This document shows, in pieces, positions 1-39,996 of a DNA stretch of 64,000 nucleotides. The position numbers and the translations under genes were made by a program. The first letter of the stretch is position 1. The number at the start of each line of letters is the position of its first letter. The notes beneath the pieces are model-generated. The model was given only the letters and a program-made list of their open reading frames with translations, was not told the origin of the DNA and ran no database searches. The DNA is from an uncultured Synergistales bacterium (GTDB taxonomy: Bacteria; Synergistota; Synergistia; Synergistales; Aminobacteriaceae), in the NCBI GenBank assembly GCA_905233565.1, contig CAJOCL010000013.1:1-64000 (forward strand), in the 5' to 3' direction.

Positions 1-338
1 CAATAATACGCGGTAAATCCTACACTTGGACACCGAAAGTAACGGGCGGAACGTCTGCTTACACATGGACAATCAGCAAGGGAAAATTACCTGACGGCCT
101 GAGCATTAACGCAAGTACGGGCAAAATTACTGGTAAGCCCACTAAGGCAGGAACTTTCAACTTTACTGTTAAGGTTACGGACAAGAATAATGTTGCAGCC
201 ACAAAGGCGTTTACAGTGAAAGTAACGCAAACTACGCTTAATCTCACAGTTCCGACAACAATAATACGCGGTAAATCCTACACTTGGACACCGAAAGTAA
301 CGGGCGGAACGTCTGCTTACACATGGACAATCAGCAAA
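1..338 (+). repeat. 258-bp tandem repeat within Ig-like gene
   Basis: Bases 1-79 recur at 259-337 with one mismatch, and the rest of the unit is more diverged. The period is an exact multiple of three, so unit gain or loss by recombination keeps the frame and changes protein length. Confidence 0.8.
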
Positions 339-938
339 GGTTCACTGCCAACGGGAATGAAGATTAACGCCTCAACCGGTAAGATTACAGGCAAACCCAC
401 TAAAACCGGCAAATTCTCATTCACTGTCAAGGTCAAAGACAAGAACAATATTGCAGCCACAAAGGTATTCACAGTAAAAGTAACTGAATCAGCCTCAACA
501 ACAGCTCAGACTTTACAGACTAAGAACTCAGCGCAGCTTGAGACAGGTACATCAAGCATTAACAGTCTGAAATCCTCAACCCCCGAAACTCTTCAGACTG
601 AAGAACTCACAGGTGTTCAGGGCAACGGAGCTATAAATCTTGCGGCAACTCTGAACGTTTCAAGCGATGATGTTGTTGAAGCCTATGAAGGCAAGGATAG
701 TGATCTTGTTAAAGTCAAGGCAGGTAAAGACTTAACTTTTATTGTCGGCGATTGGGGCGTTGATGTATCAAACGTTACCGTATACGTCAATGAAAACGCT
801 CTTGAAGGCATAACGCTTGAAGATAACAAATTCACTTTACCGCCCGAAATCGTACACGATGACTTCAAAGTAAGCGTCAAAGCTCAAAGCGGGAACGGCA
901 AACTCGAATCTGAAGAAGTCTACGTAATTTCCGAATAA
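1..938 (+). CDS. Ig-like repeat surface protein, C-terminal fragment
   Basis: The reading frame is open from the first base of the window (codons start at base 3), so this is the 3' end of a larger gene. It encodes almost two Ig-like repeats of the putative-Ig (He_PIG) type, each with a Gly-Lys-Ser-Tyr-Thr-Trp start, a Leu-Pro-(Asp/Thr)-Gly turn and an Ile-Thr-Gly-Lys-Pro-Thr motif. A Ser/Thr-rich linker and a C-terminal beta-rich domain of about 110 residues follow. The repeat period is 258 bases (86 codons), and the first 79 bases of the two copies are almost identical. The same repeats and C-terminal domain occur in the inverted gene at 5490-8912, so the two are paralogues. It is probably an exported adhesin-like protein; the signal peptide would lie outside the window. 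A start at 216 is only an internal GTG or ATG and is not the true start. Confidence 0.8.
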   Translation, partial: IIRGKSYTWTPKVTGGTSAYTWTISKGKLPDGLSINASTGKITGKPTKAGTFNFTVKVTDKNNVAATKAFTVKVTQTTLNLTVPTTIIRGKSYTWTPKVTGGTSAYTWTISKGSLPTGMKINASTGKITGKPTKTGKFSFTVKVKDKNNIAATKVFTVKVTESASTTAQTLQTKNSAQLETGTSSINSLKSSTPETLQTEELTGVQGNGAINLAATLNVSSDDVVEAYEGKDSDLVKVKAGKDLTFIVGDWGVDVSNVTVYVNENALEGITLEDNKFTLPPEIVHDDFKVSVKAQSGNGKLESEEVYVISE

Positions 939-5489: not shown

Positions 5490-8400
5490 TTATTCGGATA
5501 TGATGTAGATTTCTTCGGATTCAAGTTCGATGCTGCCGCTTACGGCTTTAACACAGACTTTGAAGTCGCCGTAAACTATTTCAGCAGGAAGAGTGAAACT
5601 GCTGTCTTCAACTTTTACGCTTTCAACGGCTTTGTCATCAACATAAACAGTAATTAATGATACATCAACGCCCCAATCGCCGACAATAAAGGTTAAGACT
5701 TTACCCGCCTTGACTTTAACAAGATCGCTGTCCTTGCCTTCATAGGCTTCAACAACATCATCGCTTGAAACGTTCAGAGTTGCAACAAGATTTATTGTCC
5801 CGTTGCCCTGAATGCTTGTAAGTTCTTCAGTCTGAAGGGTTACGGGGATTGAGGATTTAAGACCGTTAATGCTTGTATCTGTTTCAAACTGCGTTGTAGT
5901 TTTAGACTTTACGGTCTGAGTTGTTGTTGAGGCTGATTCAGTTACTTTGACGGTGAATGCCTTAGTGGCTGCAATGTTGTTCTTGTCCTTAGCTTTCAAG
6001 GTGAATGAGAATTTGCCGGTTTTAGTGGGCTTGCCCGTGATTTTGCCTGTACTTGCGTTAATCTTCATTCCCGTTGGCAGTGAACCTTTGCTGATTGTCC
6101 ATGTGTAAGCCGATGTTCCTCCAGTTGCCTTTAGTGTCCAAGTGTAAGACTTTCCGCGTACTATTGTCGCAGGAATCAAAGCAGTAATTGTAGTCTGTGT
6201 TACTTTGACAGTAAACGCCTTAGTGGCTGCAACATTGTTCTTGTCAGTAACTTTTACGGTAAATTTGAAAGTTCCTGCCTTAGTGGGCTTGCCTGTAATT
6301 TTGCCCGTACTTGCGTTAATGCTCAGGCCGTCAGGTAATTTTCCCTTGCTGATTGTCCACTTATAAGACGATGTTCCGCCCGAAACTTTCGGTGTACAGG
6401 TGTAGGATTTACCGCGTATTATTGTTGCCGGAACTGTAAGATTAAGCGTAGTTTGAGTTACCTTGACGGTGAATGCCTTTGTAGCCGTGTAGCCGTTATT
6501 GTCTTTTAGTTGAACCGTAAACGTGAATATCCCGGCTTTTGTCGGCTTCCCGGTAATTTTGCCCGTACTTTTTGTAAGTTTTAGGCCATCGGGCAATTTT
6601 CCATCGCTAACCGTCCAAGTGTAAGGAGTTTTTCCCTTTTTCCCTGAAAGCTGAACGCTGTATGACACGCCCCTGATTGTATTAGAGAGGGTTTTTGTGC
6701 TTATTACGGCAGAACTTACTTTGACATTTTCATCACACAAAACTTTTACTACATTAGGGCAGTTACCGACATCGAGTGCTTTTATTTTGTTAATGCTGCA
6801 ATCAAGCTCTCTTAAAGCGGTATTTTTGCTAACATCAAGTTTTGTAAGTTTGTTTAATGAACAGTTCAGATACGTTAAAGCCGTGTTCTTGTTCAAATCA
6901 AGCGAGGTAAGCAGATTCTCAGAGCAGTCAAATTCCTGCAGCTTTGTGCATTTGCTGACATCAAGCGTCTTCAGCTTATTTCCGGCACAGTACAGAATTT
7001 TTAAGGCAGTGTTCCCGCTCACATCAAGCATTGTCAACTCATTGCCGTAACAGAACAGCCACGTTAATTTCGTATTTTTCCTCAAATCAAGTTTAGTCAG
7101 CTTGTTTAAGGAGCAGTCCAGCGTTGTTAAGGCCGTGAAAAATTCAACGCCCGTTAAGTCTGCTGCGCTACCTGAACCGAGATAAATGCTCTTAACATTT
7201 GCCGCTTCCTTTTTGCTCAGTAATCCGTCTCCGTTCGTGTCGCATTTCTCAAGTACATAATTCCTGAACGTTTTATCAGGAAATGTCTTCTCATTAATCG
7301 GCACAACACCGTCAAAATCCGAATTAGCGGCTACTTTGATCATGAACTGCCTTGCGTCACTGTTGCCGTTAGCGTCAGTTACCTTCAGCGTGAAAATTGC
7401 ATATTGACCGCCGAATTTAGGAGTTCCCGTGAGACGTGCATATTTTCCCATTGTATTATCATCTGAACTTATCCCCTTTTTGCTGTCCGAAAAGCTCAGA
7501 GTAAGACCCTCAGGAATAATTTTATTTATCACGCTCCACGTGTAAGGTGCTTTACCCTTCAATGCAATTACAAAGCCTGAAAATGATTTTCCCTCTTTAG
7601 CGTCAGCGAAATCACCGCTTATTACCGGGATAGTGTACGGAGCTTTGACATTTTTTGAGCCTCCCGGCAGTCCTCCAGGAACGCTTATTGAAAATTTTTG
7701 CAGTAACGTTCTTCCGTCAGCATCAACAACTTTCAGGATAAATTCATTTTCTGCATATGCTCCGTTCTCAATTAGCGTGCCTTGAAATTGAAGCCAATCC
7801 GTTCGATTTTCCCCGTACCAGTTTACTGTACTCATGCTTATACCTTCAGGAAGACTTCCGGCTATAATTGATGACTCATACGGTGAACGTCCCCCCTTGA
7901 TATATACAGTTTCATAATAACCGTAATATTTTTCGCTCCTCCATTCAGGTGCAAGGGTTACATCAGGCAAATCACCGTCTATATACAAATTATGGCTGAT
8001 TTTATCGCCGTTTACCTTGAGCGTTAAATCTTTTTCTGCCGTTTTCCCTTTCCCGTCAATAACAGAAAGAGTAAAGTTATACGTATCAGGAGATACAGGA
8101 GTTCCGATTATCCTCACACTGTTTACTCCGTTACCCGTAACATCAAGCGACATTCCGGGCGGAATAAATCCCTTTGATATTCGCCATATGTACGGAGCAG
8201 CCCCCTCTTCTGCCGAGAACCTTGCACCATAAGGACTGCAATATTCACTGCCTACACTGCCTTCTCCCGGAATCCAGCCTGAAATACTCAGCGGAGTATA
8301 AGCAACTTTCATTGTTACCTGTTCTTCGCCTGTCCTGCCGTTTGAATCCGTAACTTTGAGGCTGAAGGTGTAAATTCCTTCTTCTTTCGTAAGTTTCCCG

Positions 8401-22213: not shown

Positions 22214-23044
22214 TCACAAAAAAATTTCATTTACTTTTATATTTACCTGTTTTATTTCCATTCCCGTAAAATAACTCAATCCCATTCTGACCTTGCGCTG
22301 TAAAGTCTTTGCGATCGATAATGCGCTTCTGCCCGAAAGACTAAGATCTAATTCAACGCTTAAAGATATTTTGTCGTCATCAGTTTCAATATCGAGATTT
22401 CGTATTTTTCTGATATGACTGCCTAGTTCGAGAAGTTTCCGGCTTAATTCAAAAATTGCTTCTGAACCGATTGTTACTTTTCCGTTGAAACTGAATAACG
22501 GTTTTACGATTGTATTTCGTGATTCGTCTTTGTCCCTTCCCTTGAAAAATCCGCGAATCTGGCTGACCAGTTTACCTGCAAAATTCTGCTGAATTTGAGC
22601 TTTTGCCGCCGGTACAACATGCTGCTTTTTGTCTCTTCGTTCACGCAGGGCCGCTTCGATTTCTTCAGGTGACGAAACGTCAGTAATCTTTATGATTTTG
22701 ACGGGGTTATTAAGTCCCAGCCTCCCAGTAATTTTTTTAATCATGCCTTCTGACGTGGCAAGTATCATGATTTTCTGCGGAGTATTTTTAGACAGGTAAT
22801 TAATAACTTCGTCCCTGTGTTCGGGGTATTCAAAGATAGCGCGTTTAATTGCGCGGAGCCTGTTAATTTCGGATTTTGCGCTGCGTCCTGCTAAAATTCT
22901 TCCGCGTGAAATAACAAGACCGTCATCAATAATAACATCAATGCCGTTCTGACGTGCTATATGAGTTGCCCTGTGGCTTTTCCCCGTACCTGCAGGGCCT
23001 ACGAAAGCGACGACTTCAATATCAGACAAGTTCAACCCTAGCAC
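22214..23044 (-). CDS. P-loop / Asp23-like two-domain protein
   Basis: 276 residues. A Walker A motif Gly-Pro-Ala-Gly-Thr-Gly-Lys-Ser is at 16-23, and an AAA-like domain with Asp-Asp-Gly-Leu-Val-Ile and Met-Ile-Leu-Ala-Thr follows to about 150. A basic linker leads to a C-terminal domain (about 188-276) that looks like Asp23/Gls24: a conserved Gly-Lys-Val-Thr-Ile-Gly-Ser-Glu-Ala-Ile strand and a final Val-Asn-Ile-Lys-Val-Asn-Glu-Ile. Asp23/Gls24 proteins usually bind membrane-associated partners. A GTG start at 23044 would overlap murA by 23 bases. Role unknown; the murA and udg neighbours suggest a housekeeping envelope or stress function. Confidence 0.6.
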   Translation of the reverse strand: MLGLNLSDIEVVAFVGPAGTGKSHRATHIARQNGIDVIIDDGLVISRGRILAGRSAKSEINRLRAIKRAIFEYPEHRDEVINYLSKNTPQKIMILATSEGMIKKITGRLGLNNPVKIIKITDVSSPEEIEAALRERRDKKQHVVPAAKAQIQQNFAGKLVSQIRGFFKGRDKDESRNTIVKPLFSFNGKVTIGSEAIFELSRKLLELGSHIRKIRNLDIETDDDKISLSVELDLSLSGRSALSIAKTLQRKVRMGLSYFTGMEIKQVNIKVNEIFL

Positions 23045-24281
23045 CTAATGCCCGTAATTTCTGGTCGATTGCCTCATAGCCGCGCCATACGTGAATCATG
23101 TCGTCAACCCTAGTTTCGCCCTGAGCAGCCAGCCCCGCGATAATCAGTGCAGCACCTGCCCTCAGGTCAGTAGCCCTTACGCTTGCGCCCTGTAATTTTT
23201 CAACGCCCCGAATAATAGCGACATCACGCGAAATTTGAATATCTGCGCCCATTCTGTTTAATTCCTGAGCGTATAAAAATCTTGCCTGAAAAACGCTTTC
23301 TTCAATCGTGCTTACGCCCCGTGCAATTGACAAAGCCGCCGCCATTTGAGGCTGTGAATCTGTCGGGAAGCCTGGATAAGGCATAGTTTTTATAGATACG
23401 GGGTGAAGCCTTTTCTTTGAGGGGAAAATTTCAACGGTGCTTTTCCTGACCGCGAACTTTGCGCCTGATTCTTCGAGTTTAGCGAGTATGGCATCAATAT
23501 GGGACGGGACGACATCTTCAATTTTTATATGTCCGTTAGTCATTACGCCGGCGAGAATGTAAGTACAAGCCTCGATTCTGTCGGGGATAACTTTTTCGCG
23601 CCCTGAATGAGCCTTATCAATGCCGATAATCCTAACGCCTCCTGCGCCTTCAGTTTCAACGGTTGCGCCTATACAGCGTAAGACGGCAGCAAGGTTGTCA
23701 ATTTCGGGCTCGCGGGCAACGTTTTCGATTATCGTTTCACCCTGAGCAAGAGTAGCAGCCATCATGAGATTTTCAGTTGCGCCGACTGACGGGAAATCAA
23801 GATATATTCTGCGCCCCCGTAATCTTCCTTTGACGCTGGCATGAACTACGCCGTTTTGAATTTCTATATCTGCCCCCATTTGCTTTAAGCCTTTGAGATG
23901 TAAATCAATCGGGCGGCTTCCGATTGAACATCCGCCGGGCAAAGGCAGCGAGACTTTTCCGCAGTTAGCTAACAGAGGGCCTAAAATGAGAGAAGATGCA
24001 CGCATTTTGCGGGCTAATGATTCTGATACTTCCCATTTAAGCTCTTCAGGAGTTTTGAAAATTACCTGAGGAGTTTTTGAATCGCGTTTGACTTCAACAT
24101 CGACACCGAGAGACTTCAGAGTGTCAATCATTGTGTTAATGTCGTGAAGGTCAGGGACGTTATCGAGAGTTAAGGCCTGACCGCGCAGTAATAAACATAC
24201 GGCCATGACGGGGAGGGCGGCATTTTTTGCACCCTGAGTTTTTATAGTACCGCTGAGGGGTATTCCCCCGTTAATTTTCAT
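23022..24281 (-). CDS. murA: UDP-N-acetylglucosamine 1-carboxyvinyltransferase
   Basis: 419 residues, the normal MurA size. The active-site loop Pro-Gly-Gly-Cys-Ser-Ile-Gly-Ser-Arg-Pro-Ile-Asp carries Cys118, the residue fosfomycin alkylates. The N-terminal Lys-Asn-Ala-Ala-Leu-Pro and C-terminal Asp-Leu-Arg-Ala-Gly-Ala-Ala motifs are present. It makes the first committed peptidoglycan precursor. Its end overlaps the P-loop/Asp23-like gene, which is probably cotranscribed. Confidence 0.96.
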   Translation of the reverse strand: MKINGGIPLSGTIKTQGAKNAALPVMAVCLLLRGQALTLDNVPDLHDINTMIDTLKSLGVDVEVKRDSKTPQVIFKTPEELKWEVSESLARKMRASSLILGPLLANCGKVSLPLPGGCSIGSRPIDLHLKGLKQMGADIEIQNGVVHASVKGRLRGRRIYLDFPSVGATENLMMAATLAQGETIIENVAREPEIDNLAAVLRCIGATVETEGAGGVRIIGIDKAHSGREKVIPDRIEACTYILAGVMTNGHIKIEDVVPSHIDAILAKLEESGAKFAVRKSTVEIFPSKKRLHPVSIKTMPYPGFPTDSQPQMAAALSIARGVSTIEESVFQARFLYAQELNRMGADIQISRDVAIIRGVEKLQGASVRATDLRAGAALIIAGLAAQGETRVDDMIHVWRGYEAIDQKLRALGARVELV

Positions 24282-24320: not shown

Positions 24321-25172
24321 TTATGAATTTTTCCAGAATTTATTAACATAAGCTGAGGCTTTTTCCAGAGTGAGATTAAAATCTTCTGCGAGCATGTGAA
24401 CCGCCTCATCAACCGATCTTCCGAATCTTTGGCACATTTTCACTGTATTCTTGATTGCGCCTTTTCTTTCCTGTTCCCAGCCGTATGCTTTCACAGCATA
24501 ATCTTGGTCAAACAACATCATCATTATATCTATGACCTCCTTTTTCCGACCTTCAAGATAATCTTTCAGAACTCCCTTATCCTGACATATACGAATAGCA
24601 TTCTCAGCAGCCAGCTTCTTGCGCCCGTATATTTTTATCTGCTCGTCAAGTACATGAGTAAAAATTATATACTGCCCGATAACATCGTCATTGCTCTCTA
24701 AATGTATTACTTTAACTAGCAAGTCAATTTTTGCATCAGGATTATGCCAGAAATCTTCCCGTAAGGAAATTATATCCTTATCAATTTTACGGTCTCCTGT
24801 ATATATCACGTAAAATTCCGGCTCTGGTATAGTCAGCTCAGATGAAGTATAAACATTTAATTTTCTTTCAAAAATATATTCCCGATAAGTGCCTGCAAGA
24901 TACATCAGTATTCTTACTAGAATATTTATACTCCATGTAGATTGAGCCTCAACAAATATAATCAGCTTATCTTTAACCAGTAATGCTAAGTCATTATACT
25001 GACTTTTCAAGATAACGGGATTAAGAGTTATAGGAACTATATCTTCTTCCTTTAAACCCTTCATTTCAGGGTGAAGCGTCTTCAGCATTTCAAGACTGTA
25101 TTTAGGAATGCTGAAGAGATCAAGAAATACCGTATTCTTCACACCCCTGCGAACTCCTGCCCTTTCAGCCAT
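24321..25172 (-). CDS. Rpn-family PD-(D/E)xK nuclease/transposase-like protein
   Basis: 283 residues of the Rpn/PDDEXK_2 family. The likely catalytic strand pair is Tyr-Asn-Asp-Leu-Ala-Leu followed by Leu-Ile-Ile-Phe-Val-Glu-Ala-Gln, the family's Asp...Glu-x-Gln core. The helical C-terminal third (Asp-Lys-Gly-Val-Leu-Lys-Asp-Tyr-Leu-Glu-Gly-Arg-Lys-Lys-Glu-Val) is the exchangeable tail. Rpn proteins are recombination-promoting nucleases and some act in phage defence; I infer a similar role. It is the only complete member in the window. A separate tail of a close relative is at 26805-27140. Two ankyrin genes lie between them. Confidence 0.75.
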   Translation of the reverse strand: MAERAGVRRGVKNTVFLDLFSIPKYSLEMLKTLHPEMKGLKEEDIVPITLNPVILKSQYNDLALLVKDKLIIFVEAQSTWSINILVRILMYLAGTYREYIFERKLNVYTSSELTIPEPEFYVIYTGDRKIDKDIISLREDFWHNPDAKIDLLVKVIHLESNDDVIGQYIIFTHVLDEQIKIYGRKKLAAENAIRICQDKGVLKDYLEGRKKEVIDIMMMLFDQDYAVKAYGWEQERKGAIKNTVKMCQRFGRSVDEAVHMLAEDFNLTLEKASAYVNKFWKNS

Positions 25173-25184
25173 AAAAATATCTCC

Positions 25185-25703
25185 TTACTGCATTTTGCCC
25201 GAAGAAAACAGCGTTTCAGACATCTTCCTAATTTCAGGATTGCTGCTGATTTCCGCTAAATCTCGTGCAGTCCTGCCGTTTTTGTCCTTAACATTAACAT
25301 CAGCGCCGGCATCAACAAGAAGTTTTACAATTTTCGGATTGTTCGTTACGCCAAGACCCAACGCTATTATCAAAGCCGTAAAGCCTTCATCATCTTTAGC
25401 GTTGACATCAGCTCCGGCATTCAATAGAAGCCTCACTGTTTCAGGATTATTACTGAACCCCGAAGCCAGCATAAGAAGAGTAACTCCGTATTCTCCTTTA
25501 GCGTTAATGTCATCGCCTGAACTGATTACTGCCCTTATCTTCTCTGGGGTCATCATCTCACCTGCTTTTTCCGCTCTCTGCTCATCCGTTTCGCATGAAC
25601 TCAGAACGTTCACAAGCTCACCGAGATAATTACGCACAGTACCGCCAGTTGCCGATGACACGCACATAAGCACCAGCATTACGCATAGTAACAATTTCTT
25701 CAT
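25185..25703 (-). CDS. Exported ankyrin-repeat protein (short)
   Basis: 172 residues from the ATG at 25703, which has GAGGAGGGAAGG upstream; ten extra residues in the open frame are not needed. A signal peptide (Met-Lys-Lys-Leu-Leu-Leu-Cys) comes first, with a Cys in the hydrophobic core and no clear lipobox. A helical segment is followed by two or three ankyrin repeats with Asn-Ala-Gly-Ala-Asp-Val-Asn-Ala-Lys-Asp. It is a near copy of the start of the next gene upstream, so the two are tandem duplicates. Confidence 0.8.
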   Translation of the reverse strand: MKKLLLCVMLVLMCVSSATGGTVRNYLGELVNVLSSCETDEQRAEKAGEMMTPEKIRAVISSGDDINAKGEYGVTLLMLASGFSNNPETVRLLLNAGADVNAKDDEGFTALIIALGLGVTNNPKIVKLLVDAGADVNVKDKNGRTARDLAEISSNPEIRKMSETLFSSGKMQ

Positions 25704-25732
25704 TCCGTTTCCTTCCCTCCTCTCAAAATTCA

Positions 25733-26710
25733 TTAAAGACCCTCAAGGGCCTTTATTATTTCCTGATTTGCTTTTCTCCGTACAGCCCAATCTTTAGCGG
25801 TTTTGCCGTCTTTGTCCTTAGTATTAACATTTGCTCCAGCATTTATGAGAATTTTCACAATTTCGAGATTACGTTCCATTGCAGCCCATATTAAAGCTGT
25901 AAAGCCGTGTTTATCCTTAACTTCTAAGTCAGCTCCAGCATTTACAATTAGTTTCACGACTTCAAGATGGCCTTTATTGATAGCAGACATTAAAGCAGTT
26001 ACACCTAATTCTTCTTCTTGAGCGTTTAAGTCAGCTCCGGCATCAATGAGTACTTTCGCTACTTCAGGATTTTTATTATAGACAGCCTGCAATAAAGCAG
26101 TCATGCCGCCGCTATGCTTAGCGTTTACATCAGCACCTAATTTAATCAATGCTTTTATCTTCTCAGGTGTTGCGTACGGTGTAATTGACAGTAAGTCTTT
26201 GCTCGGATCTCCTGAAGTGTAAAGCAATGAGTCTGCCATCTTAGAGATTTCAGGATTTTTACTGCGTTTTGCATAGACACTTGCAGTCTTACCGTATTTG
26301 TCTTTAAGGGTTATATTAGCTCCAGCATCAAGCAAAATCTTGACGGCTTCGGACTTACCCAGTAGGGCGGCTACCATTAAAGCAGTTCTACCGTCATTGT
26401 CCTTAGCGTTTACATCAGCACCGGCATTCAGCAGAAGCCTAACTGTTTCAGAATTATTGCTAAATCCTGAAGCCAGCATAAGTAGCGTAACGCCGTATTC
26501 TCCCCTAGAGTTAATATCATCGCCTGAACTGATTACCGCTCTTATTCTCTCAGGGGTAATTATCGTGCCTGCTTTTTCTAACCTCTGCTTATCTGTTTTG
26601 CATGAATTCAGAGCGTTCATAACTTCACTGAGATAATCACGTACAGTGCCGCCCGTTGCTGATGATACGCAGATAATAACCAGCATTATGCATAGTAATA
26701 ATTTCTTCAT
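25733..26710 (-). CDS. Exported ankyrin-repeat protein (long)
   Basis: 325 residues from the ATG at 26710. The upstream 61 codons of the open frame cross a duplicated wecB tail in another frame and are not part of the gene. The signal peptide is nearly the same as that of the neighbouring short protein. About seven ankyrin repeats follow, with the consensus Asn-Ala-Gly-Ala-Asp and Gly-Xaa-Thr-Ala-Leu. The fold binds proteins; the target is unknown. It is located in the Rpn island rather than with the surrounding housekeeping genes. Confidence 0.8.
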   Translation of the reverse strand: MKKLLLCIMLVIICVSSATGGTVRDYLSEVMNALNSCKTDKQRLEKAGTIITPERIRAVISSGDDINSRGEYGVTLLMLASGFSNNSETVRLLLNAGADVNAKDNDGRTALMVAALLGKSEAVKILLDAGANITLKDKYGKTASVYAKRSKNPEISKMADSLLYTSGDPSKDLLSITPYATPEKIKALIKLGADVNAKHSGGMTALLQAVYNKNPEVAKVLIDAGADLNAQEEELGVTALMSAINKGHLEVVKLIVNAGADLEVKDKHGFTALIWAAMERNLEIVKILINAGANVNTKDKDGKTAKDWAVRRKANQEIIKALEGL

Positions 26711-26717
26711 TAGTTTT

Positions 26718-26806
26718 TCACTCCCCGAAAAATTTTTTGATTGCCTCATGTATCTTAACACTTGCCGTCCCATTCCCAAACGGCGTAGTGTTCTCGCTAA
26801 GTCTTC
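26718..26806 (-). pseudogene. Duplicated wecB 3' end (remnant)
   Basis: In the minus-strand frame that continues directly after the stop of the Rpn tail, codons read Pro-Phe-Gly-Asn-Gly-Thr-Ala-Ser-(x)-Lys-Ile-His-Glu-Ala, then a stop. The real wecB at 27133-28251 ends with the same motif. Only the last 25-30 codons are kept. Confidence 0.7.
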
Positions 26807-27140
26807 AGCTTCCCCAAAATTCCATGACATGCTTTGAGGCTGCTTCTTCCGATAGGCCAAAACTTTCCATAAGCATACTAACAGCCTCATCAATCGTTGT
26901 TCCCAACCGCCTGCACGTTCCGACTATACCCTCCATTTTTCCTCGTTTTTCCCCTTTTTTCTCGCCTCTTCGTTCCCGTTCTCTGCCATATACTTCCATA
27001 GCGTAATTCTGATCAAAAAGCATCACCATTATGTCAACTACCTCCTTCTTTCTGCCGTCAAGATATTCCCTCAGAACCCCATTATCCTGATATATCCGAA
27101 TCGTATTCTTTGCGTCCCAACGGACTGCTTCATCAATCAC
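26805..27140 (-). pseudogene. Orphan Rpn C-terminal tail
   Basis: About 111 codons matching the last third of the complete Rpn gene at 24321-25172 (Gly-Val-Leu-Arg-Glu-Tyr-Leu-Asp-Gly-Arg-Lys-Lys-Glu-Val-Val-Asp-Ile). The first part of the gene, including the nuclease core, is missing. It opens with a GTG that overlaps the wecB stop by eight bases. It may be a dead remnant. E. coli Rpn proteins are reported to produce internal C-terminal products that inhibit the full-length nuclease, so a stand-alone tail could also be functional. Confidence 0.6.
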
Positions 27141-28251
27141 GAAAATATCCCTTCACTGCTTCATGAATCTTCTTGCTCGCAGTCCCATTCCCAAAAGGTT
27201 TAATATTTTTCCCGATTATTGCCCTCATATATTCAGGTTCATTAATTATCTTCAAAGCCTCAGCGCGTATATTCTCCCTGTCAGTGCCGACGAGAATACA
27301 AGTACCCTCGCTTATTGCTTCCGGCCTCTCAGAAACACTGCGCATGATTAAAACTGGCTTGTCAATCGCCGTAGCTTCTTCCTGTACTCCTCCGCTGTCT
27401 GAAAGTATGAATTTCGCTTTGCTCATAGCGTAAACAAATTCAGGGTAATTCAAAGGCTCCGTGAATATCACATTATCAGGGTAATTTTTAAGTTCCTCGC
27501 GTATAACGTTCCTGACTGTCGGGTTTTTGTGCAACGGTATCAGAAAAACTACATCTTTTCTTGCACGAATAATATCTCTGACCGCACCGCATATCTGAAT
27601 AAGCGGCTGCCCCCAAGATTCCCGCCTGTGTGCAGTCATAAGAACTAAAGGACGACCGTTAATTCCCCGTAAATATTCCGGTTCATTCATTCCCTTCCGT
27701 CTTTCAAGAATGTCATACAGCGCATCAATTACCGTATTCCCGGTTATGTGTATTTTTGCCTCACATATTCCCTCATTTTTTAGATTTTCAGCAGCTCCCT
27801 TTGTCGGCGCAAAAAATATGCCTGCTATCCTGTCAGTTAATACCCTGTTTGCCTCTTCAGGGAACGGAAGAGCCATGTTATTGCTACGTAAACCTGCCTC
27901 AACATGGCCGGACGGTATATGCCTGTAAAATCCCGCAAGTGCCGCCGCAAATGTCGTTGAAGTATCGCCGTGTACAAGTATCATGTCCTGAGGGTTTTCG
28001 TCAAGAAAATTTCCAACTCCCTGAAGGACGCTCGATGTTATGTGATCTAATGACTGCTTATCCTTCATTATGTTCAAGTTAAAATCTGCCGTAATCCCGA
28101 AATCATCAAGTGCCTGTCTCAACATGTCTGTGTGCTGCCCTGTAGCTAAAACCGTAACTTTTATCTCAGAATCTTTCTTTAATTCAAGAATTACGGGAGC
28201 CATTTTTATTGCTTCGGGACGCGTCCCGACTATACAAGCTATATTTTTCAT
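27133..28251 (-). CDS. wecB: UDP-N-acetylglucosamine 2-epimerase (non-hydrolysing)
   Basis: 372 residues, typical size. It has Gly-Thr-Arg-Pro-Glu-Ala-Ile-Lys-Met-Ala at the N-terminus, His-Val-Glu-Ala-Gly-Leu-Arg in the middle and Asp-Ser-Gly-Gly-Val-Gln-Glu-Glu-Ala near the C-terminus. It makes UDP-ManNAc for surface polysaccharides. It is paired with the WecA/MraY-type gene three bases upstream, consistent with glycan assembly on an undecaprenyl carrier. The Rpn tail is fused to its 3' end. Confidence 0.95.
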   Translation of the reverse strand: MKNIACIVGTRPEAIKMAPVILELKKDSEIKVTVLATGQHTDMLRQALDDFGITADFNLNIMKDKQSLDHITSSVLQGVGNFLDENPQDMILVHGDTSTTFAAALAGFYRHIPSGHVEAGLRSNNMALPFPEEANRVLTDRIAGIFFAPTKGAAENLKNEGICEAKIHITGNTVIDALYDILERRKGMNEPEYLRGINGRPLVLMTAHRRESWGQPLIQICGAVRDIIRARKDVVFLIPLHKNPTVRNVIREELKNYPDNVIFTEPLNYPEFVYAMSKAKFILSDSGGVQEEATAIDKPVLIMRSVSERPEAISEGTCILVGTDRENIRAEALKIINEPEYMRAIIGKNIKPFGNGTASKKIHEAVKGYFRD

Positions 28252-37382: not shown

Positions 37383-38687
37383 TTACTCTGTAAAAACTGT
37401 CTGTTCCGTTATTTCAGTCTGAAGAGCCTTCAAAGCTCGTTCAACAAGCGAACGCCTCAAAATCTTTTCTTCTTCGGGCGTTTTTGAAGGATTGCCCAAA
37501 GGATGAGGAATTGCTATTGTCGGAACGATTCTGTTTGCTCCGACAGTCTGAGATATCGGGACTATCGTACACATGTGAACAACTGGTAATTTACGCTCAA
37601 TTTCTTTGACCATCGTTGCACCGCAACGAGTACAGGTTCCTCAGGTAGATGTCAGGATTACGGCCGTAACGCCGTCATTAACGAGCCTGTTCACGATTTC
37701 CGCACCGAATCTCTTTGCGTTTGCTACTGATGTTCCGTTGCCTACTGTTGTATAGAACTTGTTATGAAGTTTTCCGATTACGCCCTCTTTTTCCAAGTCT
37801 CTCAAGACATCAACGGGGAGTACCCTGTCAGCGTCCTGATCCGCGTATGTAGCGTCATATCCTCCGTGTGCAGTGCAGTATGTTTCACTTGTAAGGTCAT
37901 TAACGCCCGTAATGTCATATTCGCCGAACTTGCTTGCGCTTGAAGCCTCGATGTGATCCGGGTTGCCTTTGGGACATATACCGCCTGAAGTTACGAGAGC
38001 TATAACGGCGTTTTTCATGTCCTTTACTGCCGGCTGAGGGTCTACCCTGTCGAAAACCGGCATTTTGTACTCAGTTTCAAAAGTTTCACCCTTCAGCTTT
38101 GACACGAACATGTCAACGCATCTTTCAGCTGCAAGTTTTTCATAGAACATATTTTTACGTATACCGCGCTCTATGTAACCCTCGTCTGACGGCCTGCCGA
38201 CTGCTTCGCCCTTCAGGAGCTTTAATACAAGTTTAGCCATTGCAGGTACGGCCTTGCGCATTCCGGCGGCACTGTCGGGAGTTTCGACAATCCAAGCATG
38301 TTTACGGTACATTTCAACGCCGGGATTCTCCGGGTACATTCCTGAGATTACGGGGATTCCGAACTCTTTTGAAACAGCCTCGCACATTGCACCGCATGCA
38401 GTACCGTAACGACCGGCATTGAACGCAGGCCCGGCGATAAAAGCATCGGGCTTGTATTCCCTTATCATGTCAATTATTGCTGACGCTGCCTCGTCCATGT
38501 TCGACGCAAAATAAGAATCTCCGCAGATTACGGTTGCGACTATTTCCGCCTCACCTTTAAGCGCTCCTTTGAATGCCATTCCCGGCCCTACAACTCCTGT
38601 ACGTATTTCGGGCTTGTAATCGGCTTTTTCTTCTCCGCCTATTCCCGCGTAAAACTGGTTTATGTAGTGTACTATTCTAAACGCCAT
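37383..38687 (-). CDS. grdB: Glycine/sarcosine/betaine reductase component B, selenoprotein (UGA at 37641-37643)
   Basis: 434 residues if the in-frame TGA at 37641-37643 is read as selenocysteine (Sec349). Upstream of it 348 residues end Leu-Thr-Ser-Thr; downstream the frame continues Sec-Gly-Thr-Cys-Thr-Arg-Cys-Gly for 85 more residues to the real stop. The Sec-x-x-Cys-x-x-Cys motif is the one known in GrdB. The start ATG at 38687 has AAGGGGTG just upstream and gives the usual Met-Ala-Phe-Arg-Ile-Val N-terminus. It is the substrate-binding large chain of the reductase, next to its pro-subunit grdE. Whether glycine, sarcosine or betaine is the substrate cannot be told by eye. Confidence 0.93.
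37614..37628 (-). promoter_or_regulatory. Candidate bacterial SECIS hairpin for grdB
   Basis: On the minus strand a perfect six-base-pair stem, CGTTGC and GCAACG around a GGT loop, begins 13 bases after the UGA, the distance expected for SelB recruitment. Confidence 0.65.
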
Positions 38688-38703
38688 GACTTTCACCCCT
38701 TTC

Positions 38704-39996
38704 TTAGAGTGTGTAAGCTCCGAGCTTCGTATATCCAAGCTCGCTTGTTGCGCCGGTTATCGCCTGAAGTTCAACGGTTATTGAGCCGTCATCAGAAAGT
38801 GAACCCTGCCACCCTCCGGCAATAACGTTAGCCTCCTCCTGATAGCCTATAACTTTTTTCATGGCCGGAAGTTTAATAACTTCGTTCGCATTTCCTGCCG
38901 TAACACACGCATCGCCTTCGGGGCATGAGTCGGCCAAAGACTGGCTTGCACCGTCCTGACCTGCGTACTCGTCAGTAAGAAGAGCCGTTTTGATTCCGAG
39001 CTGTTCGGATTTCCGGCAGTTCATGATTAAATCAGCGTCAGGATTTCCGAATCCTTCTTCAGTTATAACAACTCCGTCAAGCCCTAACATTGCTGCTAAT
39101 TTCGTTGCGTAGCTTGAACTTCTGCGTTTGTCGGCGAGCGTAACATTTTCATTTGTTACGATACATGCAACAAAATTGAAGTCCTTTCCGTGACGCTTCA
39201 GCATGTCAGAAATTACGGGGTTATTAAGATGTGAATAGGTGCTGTTTTTGTCGCAGGCCGATACGCAGTTCCCTGAGACTATTGCACCGTCCATGACTTC
39301 GAGAGGCGAAATTAAAGTCGGCAGAATGCGCTTTACGTCAACGCCATATAAATATGTGTCATGAAGCAACCCCTGTGTCTGAAGCATATAAATATATCCG
39401 ACTTTCGGCAGTTCAGGGTATGAGTTCATTGCATCGCGTATTTTCGGCATTTCGTAAACTTCTGTGCTGTCAGCCTGAAGACCTGAACATGATTTCGCAA
39501 GATATGCCGCCGCTTTCAGTCCGGCCATGCGGCAGGCTGTTTCGTAGTCGTGCTTGTCCATGTTGGGATCGGACGGCTCAAGGATTAAAACGACATTGCA
39601 GGTCTTTGAGTAAGGCGTGTAATCAGCACCCGGCCCGGACATATCGATTATTCCCTCCTGAAAGCGTACGAGCTTCCCGGCGGTCAAAACTGCACAGCCG
39701 GAGAGTACGAGAGTTTTCCCCTCTCCTACCGTTTCAACATCGCTTAACATTCCCGGAAAAACCTGGCCTTTACCCTCAATTTTCCAGCGCGGTTCGATAA
39801 CGTCTTTTACGGGCATTATGCGGACACTTTCGCCGGGCATTGCGATATCAGCATCAATATTTTTGCCGAGCATGGGATCTTCTGAAATTAGAGCGATTAA
39901 TTCGGCCTTGTTAATGGCCAGCACTCCGTCAGAAAAACCCGTTTTGTCCCCGAACTTCAGGGACTTTACGTTTAACTTTTGCAGTTCCAGCTTCAT
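38704..39996 (-). CDS. grdE: Glycine/sarcosine/betaine reductase component B proprotein
   Basis: 430 residues. The Asn243-Cys244 pair in Gly-Asn-Cys-Val-Ser-Ala-Cys-Asp-Lys is the known site of self-cleavage, which turns Cys244 into the pyruvoyl group that binds the amino acid substrate. The length and motifs fit GrdE or its paralogues GrdG and GrdI. It lies between grdX and grdB with 8-16 base gaps, so the three form one operon. GrdA, C, D and the thioredoxin pair are not in the window. Confidence 0.92.
   Translation of the reverse strand: MKLELQKLNVKSLKFGDKTGFSDGVLAINKAELIALISEDPMLGKNIDADIAMPGESVRIMPVKDVIEPRWKIEGKGQVFPGMLSDVETVGEGKTLVLSGCAVLTAGKLVRFQEGIIDMSGPGADYTPYSKTCNVVLILEPSDPNMDKHDYETACRMAGLKAAAYLAKSCSGLQADSTEVYEMPKIRDAMNSYPELPKVGYIYMLQTQGLLHDTYLYGVDVKRILPTLISPLEVMDGAIVSGNCVSACDKNSTYSHLNNPVISDMLKRHGKDFNFVACIVTNENVTLADKRRSSSYATKLAAMLGLDGVVITEEGFGNPDADLIMNCRKSEQLGIKTALLTDEYAGQDGASQSLADSCPEGDACVTAGNANEVIKLPAMKKVIGYQEEANVIAGGWQGSLSDDGSITVELQAITGATSELGYTKLGAYTL

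What the first reader, a model, noticed from the sequence alone, without database searches (positions are those of the whole stretch)
24321..27140. Rpn island with a stand-alone Rpn tail and duplicated exported ankyrin proteins
A complete Rpn nuclease and a tail-only copy flank two related ankyrin proteins. In E. coli, C-terminal Rpn products are reported to inhibit the nuclease, so the orphan tail may be an antitoxin or immunity factor. The island could be a defence or competition locus with exported ankyrin partners, though the ankyrins might be unrelated passengers.
Basis: partly seen in the sequence, partly recalled or inferred. Interest (0 to 1): 0.65.

Follow-up and report, generated by a model that had tools for sequence, protein, structure and literature searches.

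The report
Rpn toxin–antitoxin in a wecB–murA slot
In a rumen-type bacterium, a DNA-cutting Rpn toxin, a separate copy of the small antitoxin normally made from inside Rpn genes, and two exported ankyrin proteins share a variable slot between two cell-envelope genes, and the separate antitoxin copy has the wrong repeat length to match its neighbour, as do the stand-alone copies compared in two other bacterial phyla.

Summary
On the minus strand the order is wecB, a 111-codon Rpn tail, ankA, ankB, a complete Rpn (283 aa), murA. In 43 genomes of the genus, wecB–murA is a variable slot: empty (16), ankyrins only (5-6), Rpn with or without tail and ankyrin (13, plus one broken assembly). Rpn and ankyrin co-residence is not significant (p=0.26), so the ankyrins are probably separate tenants.

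The nuclease gene carries an internal Shine-Dalgarno/ATG, the hallmark of intragenic RpnS antitoxin. Its AAG-GAG codons are invariant in slot Rpns while the neighbouring Lys codon varies. The tail keeps the same signal, so it is a stand-alone RpnS, a known kind (E. coli ypaA).

The new point contradicts the simple antitoxin reading. The tail's helix is 8 aa (two 4-aa repeats) longer than the resident nuclease's. All 9 full-helix tail/nuclease pairs outside E. coli and 12 distinct E. coli rpnE/ypaA pairs differ by a non-zero multiple of four. Published work shows that one extra repeat abolishes inhibition. The tail is therefore probably not antitoxin to its neighbour, but a non-cognate RpnS left from an earlier allele or a spare tail cassette. 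Translation and function are untested.

The parts
24321..25172 (-). RpnL: complete Rpn-type PD-(D/E)XK nuclease, 283 aa; predicted catalytic D61, E75-x-Q77
   Evidence: weak PF12784 match
24522..24542 (-). internal Shine-Dalgarno (AAGGAGG at 24542-24536) and internal start ATG (24524-24522) for the intragenic RpnS of this gene (67 aa)
   Evidence: AAG 13/13 and GAG 14/14 in slot homologues
25185..25733 (-). ankB: exported ankyrin-repeat protein, 182 aa
25733..26710 (-). ankA: exported ankyrin-repeat protein, 325 aa, 68% identical to AnkB over about 170 aa
26718..26804 (-). duplicated wecB 3' end (RLSENTTPFGNGTASVKIHEAIKKFFGE*), a recombination scar
26805..27140 (-). stand-alone Rpn tail, 111 codons from GTG overlapping the wecB stop
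26805..27029 (-). RpnS proper within the tail, 74 aa from ATG 27029; long helix with two more 4-aa repeats than the resident RpnL
27041..27047 (-). preserved Shine-Dalgarno AAGGAGG of the tail's internal start
23022..24281 (-). murA, downstream border of the slot
27133..28251 (-). wecB (UDP-GlcNAc 2-epimerase), upstream border of the slot

Best explanation
This is an Rpn toxin-antitoxin locus (nuclease RpnL plus its intragenic antitoxin RpnS) living in a variable slot between wecB and murA, together with a second, stand-alone RpnS and two independent exported-ankyrin genes. RpnL cleaves DNA, and its own RpnS, translated from the internal AAGGAGG...ATG, dimerises through the long C-terminal helix and holds it inactive (mechanism as shown for E. 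coli RpnA; inferred here). The stand-alone tail is also an RpnS, but two 4-aa repeats longer than the resident nuclease's helix. It is therefore predicted not to neutralise its neighbour. It is most likely the leftover antitoxin of an earlier slot allele (closest to, and the same helix length as, the G032-type Rpn), retained as a non-cognate antitoxin or as a spare tail cassette. The ankyrins are separate periplasmic tenants of the slot.
For: Slot and recurrence: wecB and Rpn are neighbours in all sister genomes that carry the close Rpn and have both on one contig. Internal start: AAG 13/13 and GAG 14/14 at the two SD codons, the only fully G-ending columns among 20 conserved Lys/Glu columns, while the adjacent Lys is AAG 4/11; same SD at fixed spacing in nearly all Clostridia homologues. 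The tail keeps AAGGAGG and ATG. Stand-alone tails elsewhere mostly begin within about 15 codons of the internal start, as does E. coli ypaA. Helix lengths step by 4 aa. Mismatch: 9/9 full-helix pairs outside E. coli and 12/12 distinct E. coli pairs (21 genomes) non-zero and a multiple of 4. Published: one added repeat abolishes inhibition; stand-alone RpnES is synthesised (PMC10327210). Window tail closest to G032 RpnL, 71%, same helix length. Fold: residues about 12-168 resemble PD-(D/E)XK nucleases.
Against: Pfam PF12784 match is below its cut-off (15.4 vs 27.4 bits), no NCBIfam or PADLOC match, profile comparison with E. coli Rpn is weak (E 0.02, probability 2.4), and fold Z-scores are modest (4-6). 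The repeat-specificity rule was tested in the source paper for RpnC only. Random slot Rpns already differ in length 81% of the time, so mismatch shows lack of matching, not selection for mismatch. Nothing here shows that the tail is translated. The G031 tail has equal spacing to its neighbour, but that tail carries a stop.
Confidence: 0.6

Rival explanations
1. The stand-alone tail is a dedicated extra antitoxin for the resident RpnL.
For: Same operon-like run, intact frame, preserved SD; stand-alone copies recur beside Rpn genes; RpnES in E. coli is made (PMC10327210).
Against: Helix length differs by 8 aa and sequence is only about 50-57% identical to the resident tail; no matched full-helix pair among 9 non-E. 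coli pairs or 12 E. coli pairs; published repeat mismatch abolishes inhibition.
Confidence: 0.15
2. The tail is a spare cassette: recombination between the conserved SD/start region and the downstream flank swaps the nuclease's C-terminal specificity helix, as orphan modules are known to do in CdiA/Rhs loci (own knowledge).
For: E. coli strains without ypaA carry the ypaA-type C-terminus fused to RpnE (L092, L093), a fusion also noted in PMC10327210. In G039 resident and tail are identical over the first 60 nt and about 98% at the end, but the middle is diverged and 36 nt shorter.
Against: No swap is seen in the window itself: resident and tail differ throughout, and the ankyrins plus a wecB scar lie between them.
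Confidence: 0.15
3. The tail is a dead remnant of an Rpn gene broken during slot recombination.
For: It begins about 37 codons upstream of the internal start, unlike most other tails, and is flanked by a duplicated wecB end. G031's tail has a stop.
Against: 111 codons open, SD and start intact, and pS 0.80 vs pN 0.16 against G032 RpnL, although that constraint may predate the truncation.
Confidence: 0.2

Closest known systems
E. coli RpnA-E / RpnP2 toxin with intragenic RpnS antitoxin (Zhong et al. 2023, PMC10327210; COG5464, PF12784)
   Same: PD-(D/E)XK-like core with Y-x-D and E-x-Q-S, internal SD in K-E codons followed by an in-frame ATG, variable helix in 4-aa steps, long-helix plus two-helix tail
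   Different: Diverged sequence below Pfam cut-off; sits in a wecB-murA slot of Synergistota; activity untested
E. coli ypaA (stand-alone RpnES) and stand-alone RpnCS
   Same: Separate RpnS gene beside an Rpn gene, keeps the internal start region; ypaA is out of register with the neighbour by 4n aa
   Different: Window tail lies upstream of the nuclease, beyond two ankyrin genes, begins 37 codons earlier, and is nearer a foreign Rpn than its neighbour
Exported ankyrin self-protection proteins: Bdellovibrio Bd3460 (PMC4686830) and T6SS phospholipase immunity protein Tli (PMC10294624)
   Same: Signal peptide plus ankyrin repeats, a lead for what the ankyrins could do
   Different: No partner effector seen here; relationship not tested

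Membership tests
Rpn nuclease (RpnL) | PD-(D/E)XK core | tested here: inconclusive
   Model pLDDT 82.8; residues about 12-168 align with EndoMS, Shedu, McrC, Can2, Cap4, BglII at Z 3.8-5.8; Pfam 15.4 vs cut-off 27.4
Rpn nuclease (RpnL) | Y-x-D and E-x-Q-S catalytic pattern of E. coli Rpn | tested here: met
   YND61 and E75AQ77 with the following S/T invariant or nearly so, aligned with YSD and EHQS (E 0.02)
Rpn toxin-antitoxin | internal translation start with SD in the coding sequence | tested here: met
   sequence and codon conservation only; translation not shown
Rpn toxin-antitoxin | C-terminal helix varying by 4-aa repeats | tested here: met
   helix spacings 24, 28, 32, 36, 40, 44 in slot homologues
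Rpn toxin-antitoxin | RpnS three-helix fold with a long first helix (PDB 7TH0) | tested here: inconclusive
   model H7-42, H46-57, H61-73, pLDDT 72.8; 7TH0 was not among the listed matches
Rpn toxin-antitoxin | DNA cleavage, toxicity, neutralisation by RpnS, phage protection | not testable with these tools
   needs experiments
Stand-alone RpnS (ypaA kind) | begins at or near the internal start and keeps its SD | tested here: met
   SD and ATG kept, but the ORF begins 37 codons upstream
Stand-alone RpnS as cognate antitoxin of the neighbour | same repeat length as the neighbouring RpnL | tested here: not met
   36 vs 28 residues

The most novel reading that the evidence does not exclude
Stand-alone Rpn tails are a class of orphan, non-cognate antitoxins (or specificity cassettes): in Synergistota, Clostridia and E. 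coli they are out of register with the adjacent nuclease, and may protect the cell against Rpn alleles it no longer carries or against addiction when the slot allele is exchanged.
Probability: 0.3. Interest if true: 0.75.

Novelty: new member of a known kind. Interest (0 to 1): 0.5.

Why it matters
Rpn proteins are a recently recognised toxin-antitoxin and anti-phage family whose stand-alone small copies have no assigned role. The out-of-register rule found here across three phyla turns that into a direct question: do orphan tails neutralise foreign rather than resident Rpn alleles, or feed tail switching? It also gives a natural slot (wecB-murA) with many alleles, including empty ones, in which to test it.

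Tried and rejected
Ankyrins as Rpn partners: rejected as unsupported (Fisher p=0.26; not corrected for relatedness). dN/dS as proof that tails are translated: rejected, because the G039 tail is mosaic with near-identical flanks and the window tail's constraint may predate its truncation. Window arrangement as a mobile element: no match of the Rpn on plasmids and only 26-29% identity in three phage records. Cross-phylum transfer into the slot: Synergistota and Clostridia sequences fall on two sides of the tree but with weak support (49/90). Intrinsic promoters/terminators within the block: at chance level. 7TH0 did not appear in the fold lists of the tail, which is uninformative for a small helical model. 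Selection for mismatch: not claimed, since random slot pairs differ 81% of the time and randomly re-paired E. coli copies match only 3%.

Full report
What is there. The minus strand of the window reads wecA, wecB (27133-28251), a 111-codon Rpn tail (26805-27140), ankA (25733-26710), ankB (25185-25733), a complete Rpn-type gene (24321-25172) and murA (23022-24281), with gaps of at most about 95 bases and several overlaps. The tail's GTG overlaps the wecB stop. Between the tail and ankA lies a second wecB 3' end of 28 codons (26718-26804), a real WecB C-terminus closest to those of other species. I read this as a scar of recombination at the wecB end. The genome (2.02 Mb, 34 contigs) has only this close Rpn pair and one distant relative. 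Named relatives are rumen and other ruminant-gut Synergistaceae metagenome assemblies.

A variable slot. I mapped the wecB-murA interval in 42 of 43 genomes of the genus (several contigs end inside it). It is empty in 16, holds ankyrins alone in 5 (6 with G045, whose murA was not found), and holds Rpn in 13 plus one assembly broken inside the Rpn (G051). Among Rpn carriers: Rpn alone (G024, G028, G041, G042), Rpn plus tail (G031, G061, G063), ankyrin plus Rpn (G047, G062), ankyrin-Rpn-ankyrin (G037), ankyrin plus a frameshifted Rpn plus tail (G032, split over two contigs), Rpn-tail-ankyrin (G039), and the window. G041 and G042 lack the N-terminal part with D61. Ankyrins are present with Rpn in 6/13 and without it in 5/21 (p=0.26; not corrected for relatedness). 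The components therefore recur, but the exact window order was seen only once.

Is it Rpn? By sequence models the match is weak: PF12784 at 15.4 bits against a cut-off of 27.4, no NCBIfam or PADLOC match. Profile comparison with E. coli RpnA/B/C/E is weak (E 0.02, probability 2.4) but aligns the catalytic segment, YND...EAQS with YSD...EHQS. The predicted structure (pLDDT 82.8) has an N-terminal domain whose modest matches (Z 3.8-5.8 over residues about 12-168) are dominated by PD-(D/E)XK nucleases such as EndoMS, Shedu, McrC, Can2, Cap4 and BglII. Together with the internal start and the 4-aa steps below, I take it as a diverged Rpn.

The internal antitoxin. Zhong et al. (PMC10327210) showed that E. 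coli Rpn genes also make RpnS from an internal start, that RpnS blocks RpnL, that the C-terminal helix varies in 4-aa repeats, that adding one repeat to RpnC or RpnCS abolishes inhibition unless both carry it, and that RpnS also exists as separate genes (ypaA). In the window Rpn the codons for KKEVIDIM spell AAA AAG GAG GTC ATA GAT ATA ATG. Over 14 slot homologues the two SD codons are AAG 13/13 and GAG 14/14. They are the only fully G-ending columns among 20 conserved Lys/Glu columns, and the neighbouring Lys is AAG in 4/11. Relatedness among the sequences is not corrected for. Clostridia homologues keep GGAGGT at the same spacing in nearly all cases. The window tail keeps AAGGAGG and the ATG, giving a 74-aa RpnS. 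It could also start at the GTG (111 aa).

Stand-alone tails. Others are G061, G039, G063 (two, one degenerate), G032, G054 (elsewhere in its genome), G015, and Clostridia L102 (two), L105 and L112. Most begin within about 15 codons of the internal start; the window tail and the degenerate G063 copy begin about 37-40 codons upstream. G031's tail carries a stop. In G039 the tail looks like a tandem copy of the piece from the SD to the ankyrin signal peptide: ends are near-identical, the middle is diverged and 36 nt shorter.

Out of register. Measured from the LF-x-Q motif to the conserved Gly, the window RpnL helix is 28 residues and the tail 36. Nine resident/tail pairs outside E. coli (window, G061, G039, G063, G032, G015, L102 twice, L105) all differ, by +8, +12, -12, -4, -4, -40, -24, -20 and -4. 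L112 was not scored because the two copies diverge at the end, and G031 is decayed. As a control I read rpnE and ypaA in 21 E. coli genomes: 12 distinct pairs, all different, by 4 to 28 residues and always a multiple of four. Random slot Rpns match 19% of the time and re-paired E. coli copies 3%, so this shows that matching is not maintained; it does not show that mismatch is selected. The window tail is 71% identical to G032's Rpn tail and has the same helix length, against about 50% to its neighbour.

Mechanism. Shown by sequence: internal start signals, repeat mismatch, slot variability, wecB scar. Inferred: RpnL is an active nuclease held by its own RpnS; the tail is a non-cognate RpnS left by an earlier allele, or a cassette. 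The cassette idea has support in E. coli, where strains without ypaA carry its C-terminus fused to RpnE (L092, L093). The ankyrins carry signal-peptide-like starts and would act outside the cytoplasm; exported ankyrins elsewhere can be self-protection proteins (PMC4686830, PMC10294624; abstracts only), but no partner is visible here.

Verdict. Stand-alone RpnS genes are already published, so this is a new member of a known kind. The register rule, which I did not find stated in the parts of PMC10327210 that I read (supplements not available), is the most interesting product.

Noticed in passing
window 37603-38738, minus strand: Selenoprotein gene of glycine-reductase GrdB type (LTSTUGTCTRCGATM; name from own knowledge of the motif): in-frame TGA at 37641-37643 followed directly by an Rfam SECIS_4 element at 37603-37640.
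   Followed up: partly
window 24657-24671, minus strand (QYIIF codons of the Rpn gene): All 14 slot Rpns keep ATAAT in TAYATAAT, exactly 147 nt before the internal ATG, with Ile169 always ATA; possibly the -10 of an internal rpnS promoter, absent from most Clostridia homologues. Could also be codon preference.
   Followed up: partly
L044 (G042) and L045 (G041): Slot Rpns that lost the N-terminal part with D61 but keep the internal SD/ATG and RpnS, as if the antitoxin outlives the toxin.
   Followed up: no
L092, L093 (E. coli rpnE without ypaA): RpnE carries the ypaA-type C-terminus, consistent with tail exchange or fusion.
   Followed up: partly
window 1-484 and 5941-6433: Two arrays of about 258-nt units, in or beside long ORFs, probably repeated extracellular domains.
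   Followed up: no
G000 contig C13 65798-66538 and other contigs: About six further ankyrin ORFs in the genome outside this slot, one cluster with two stops in the aligned stretch.
   Followed up: no
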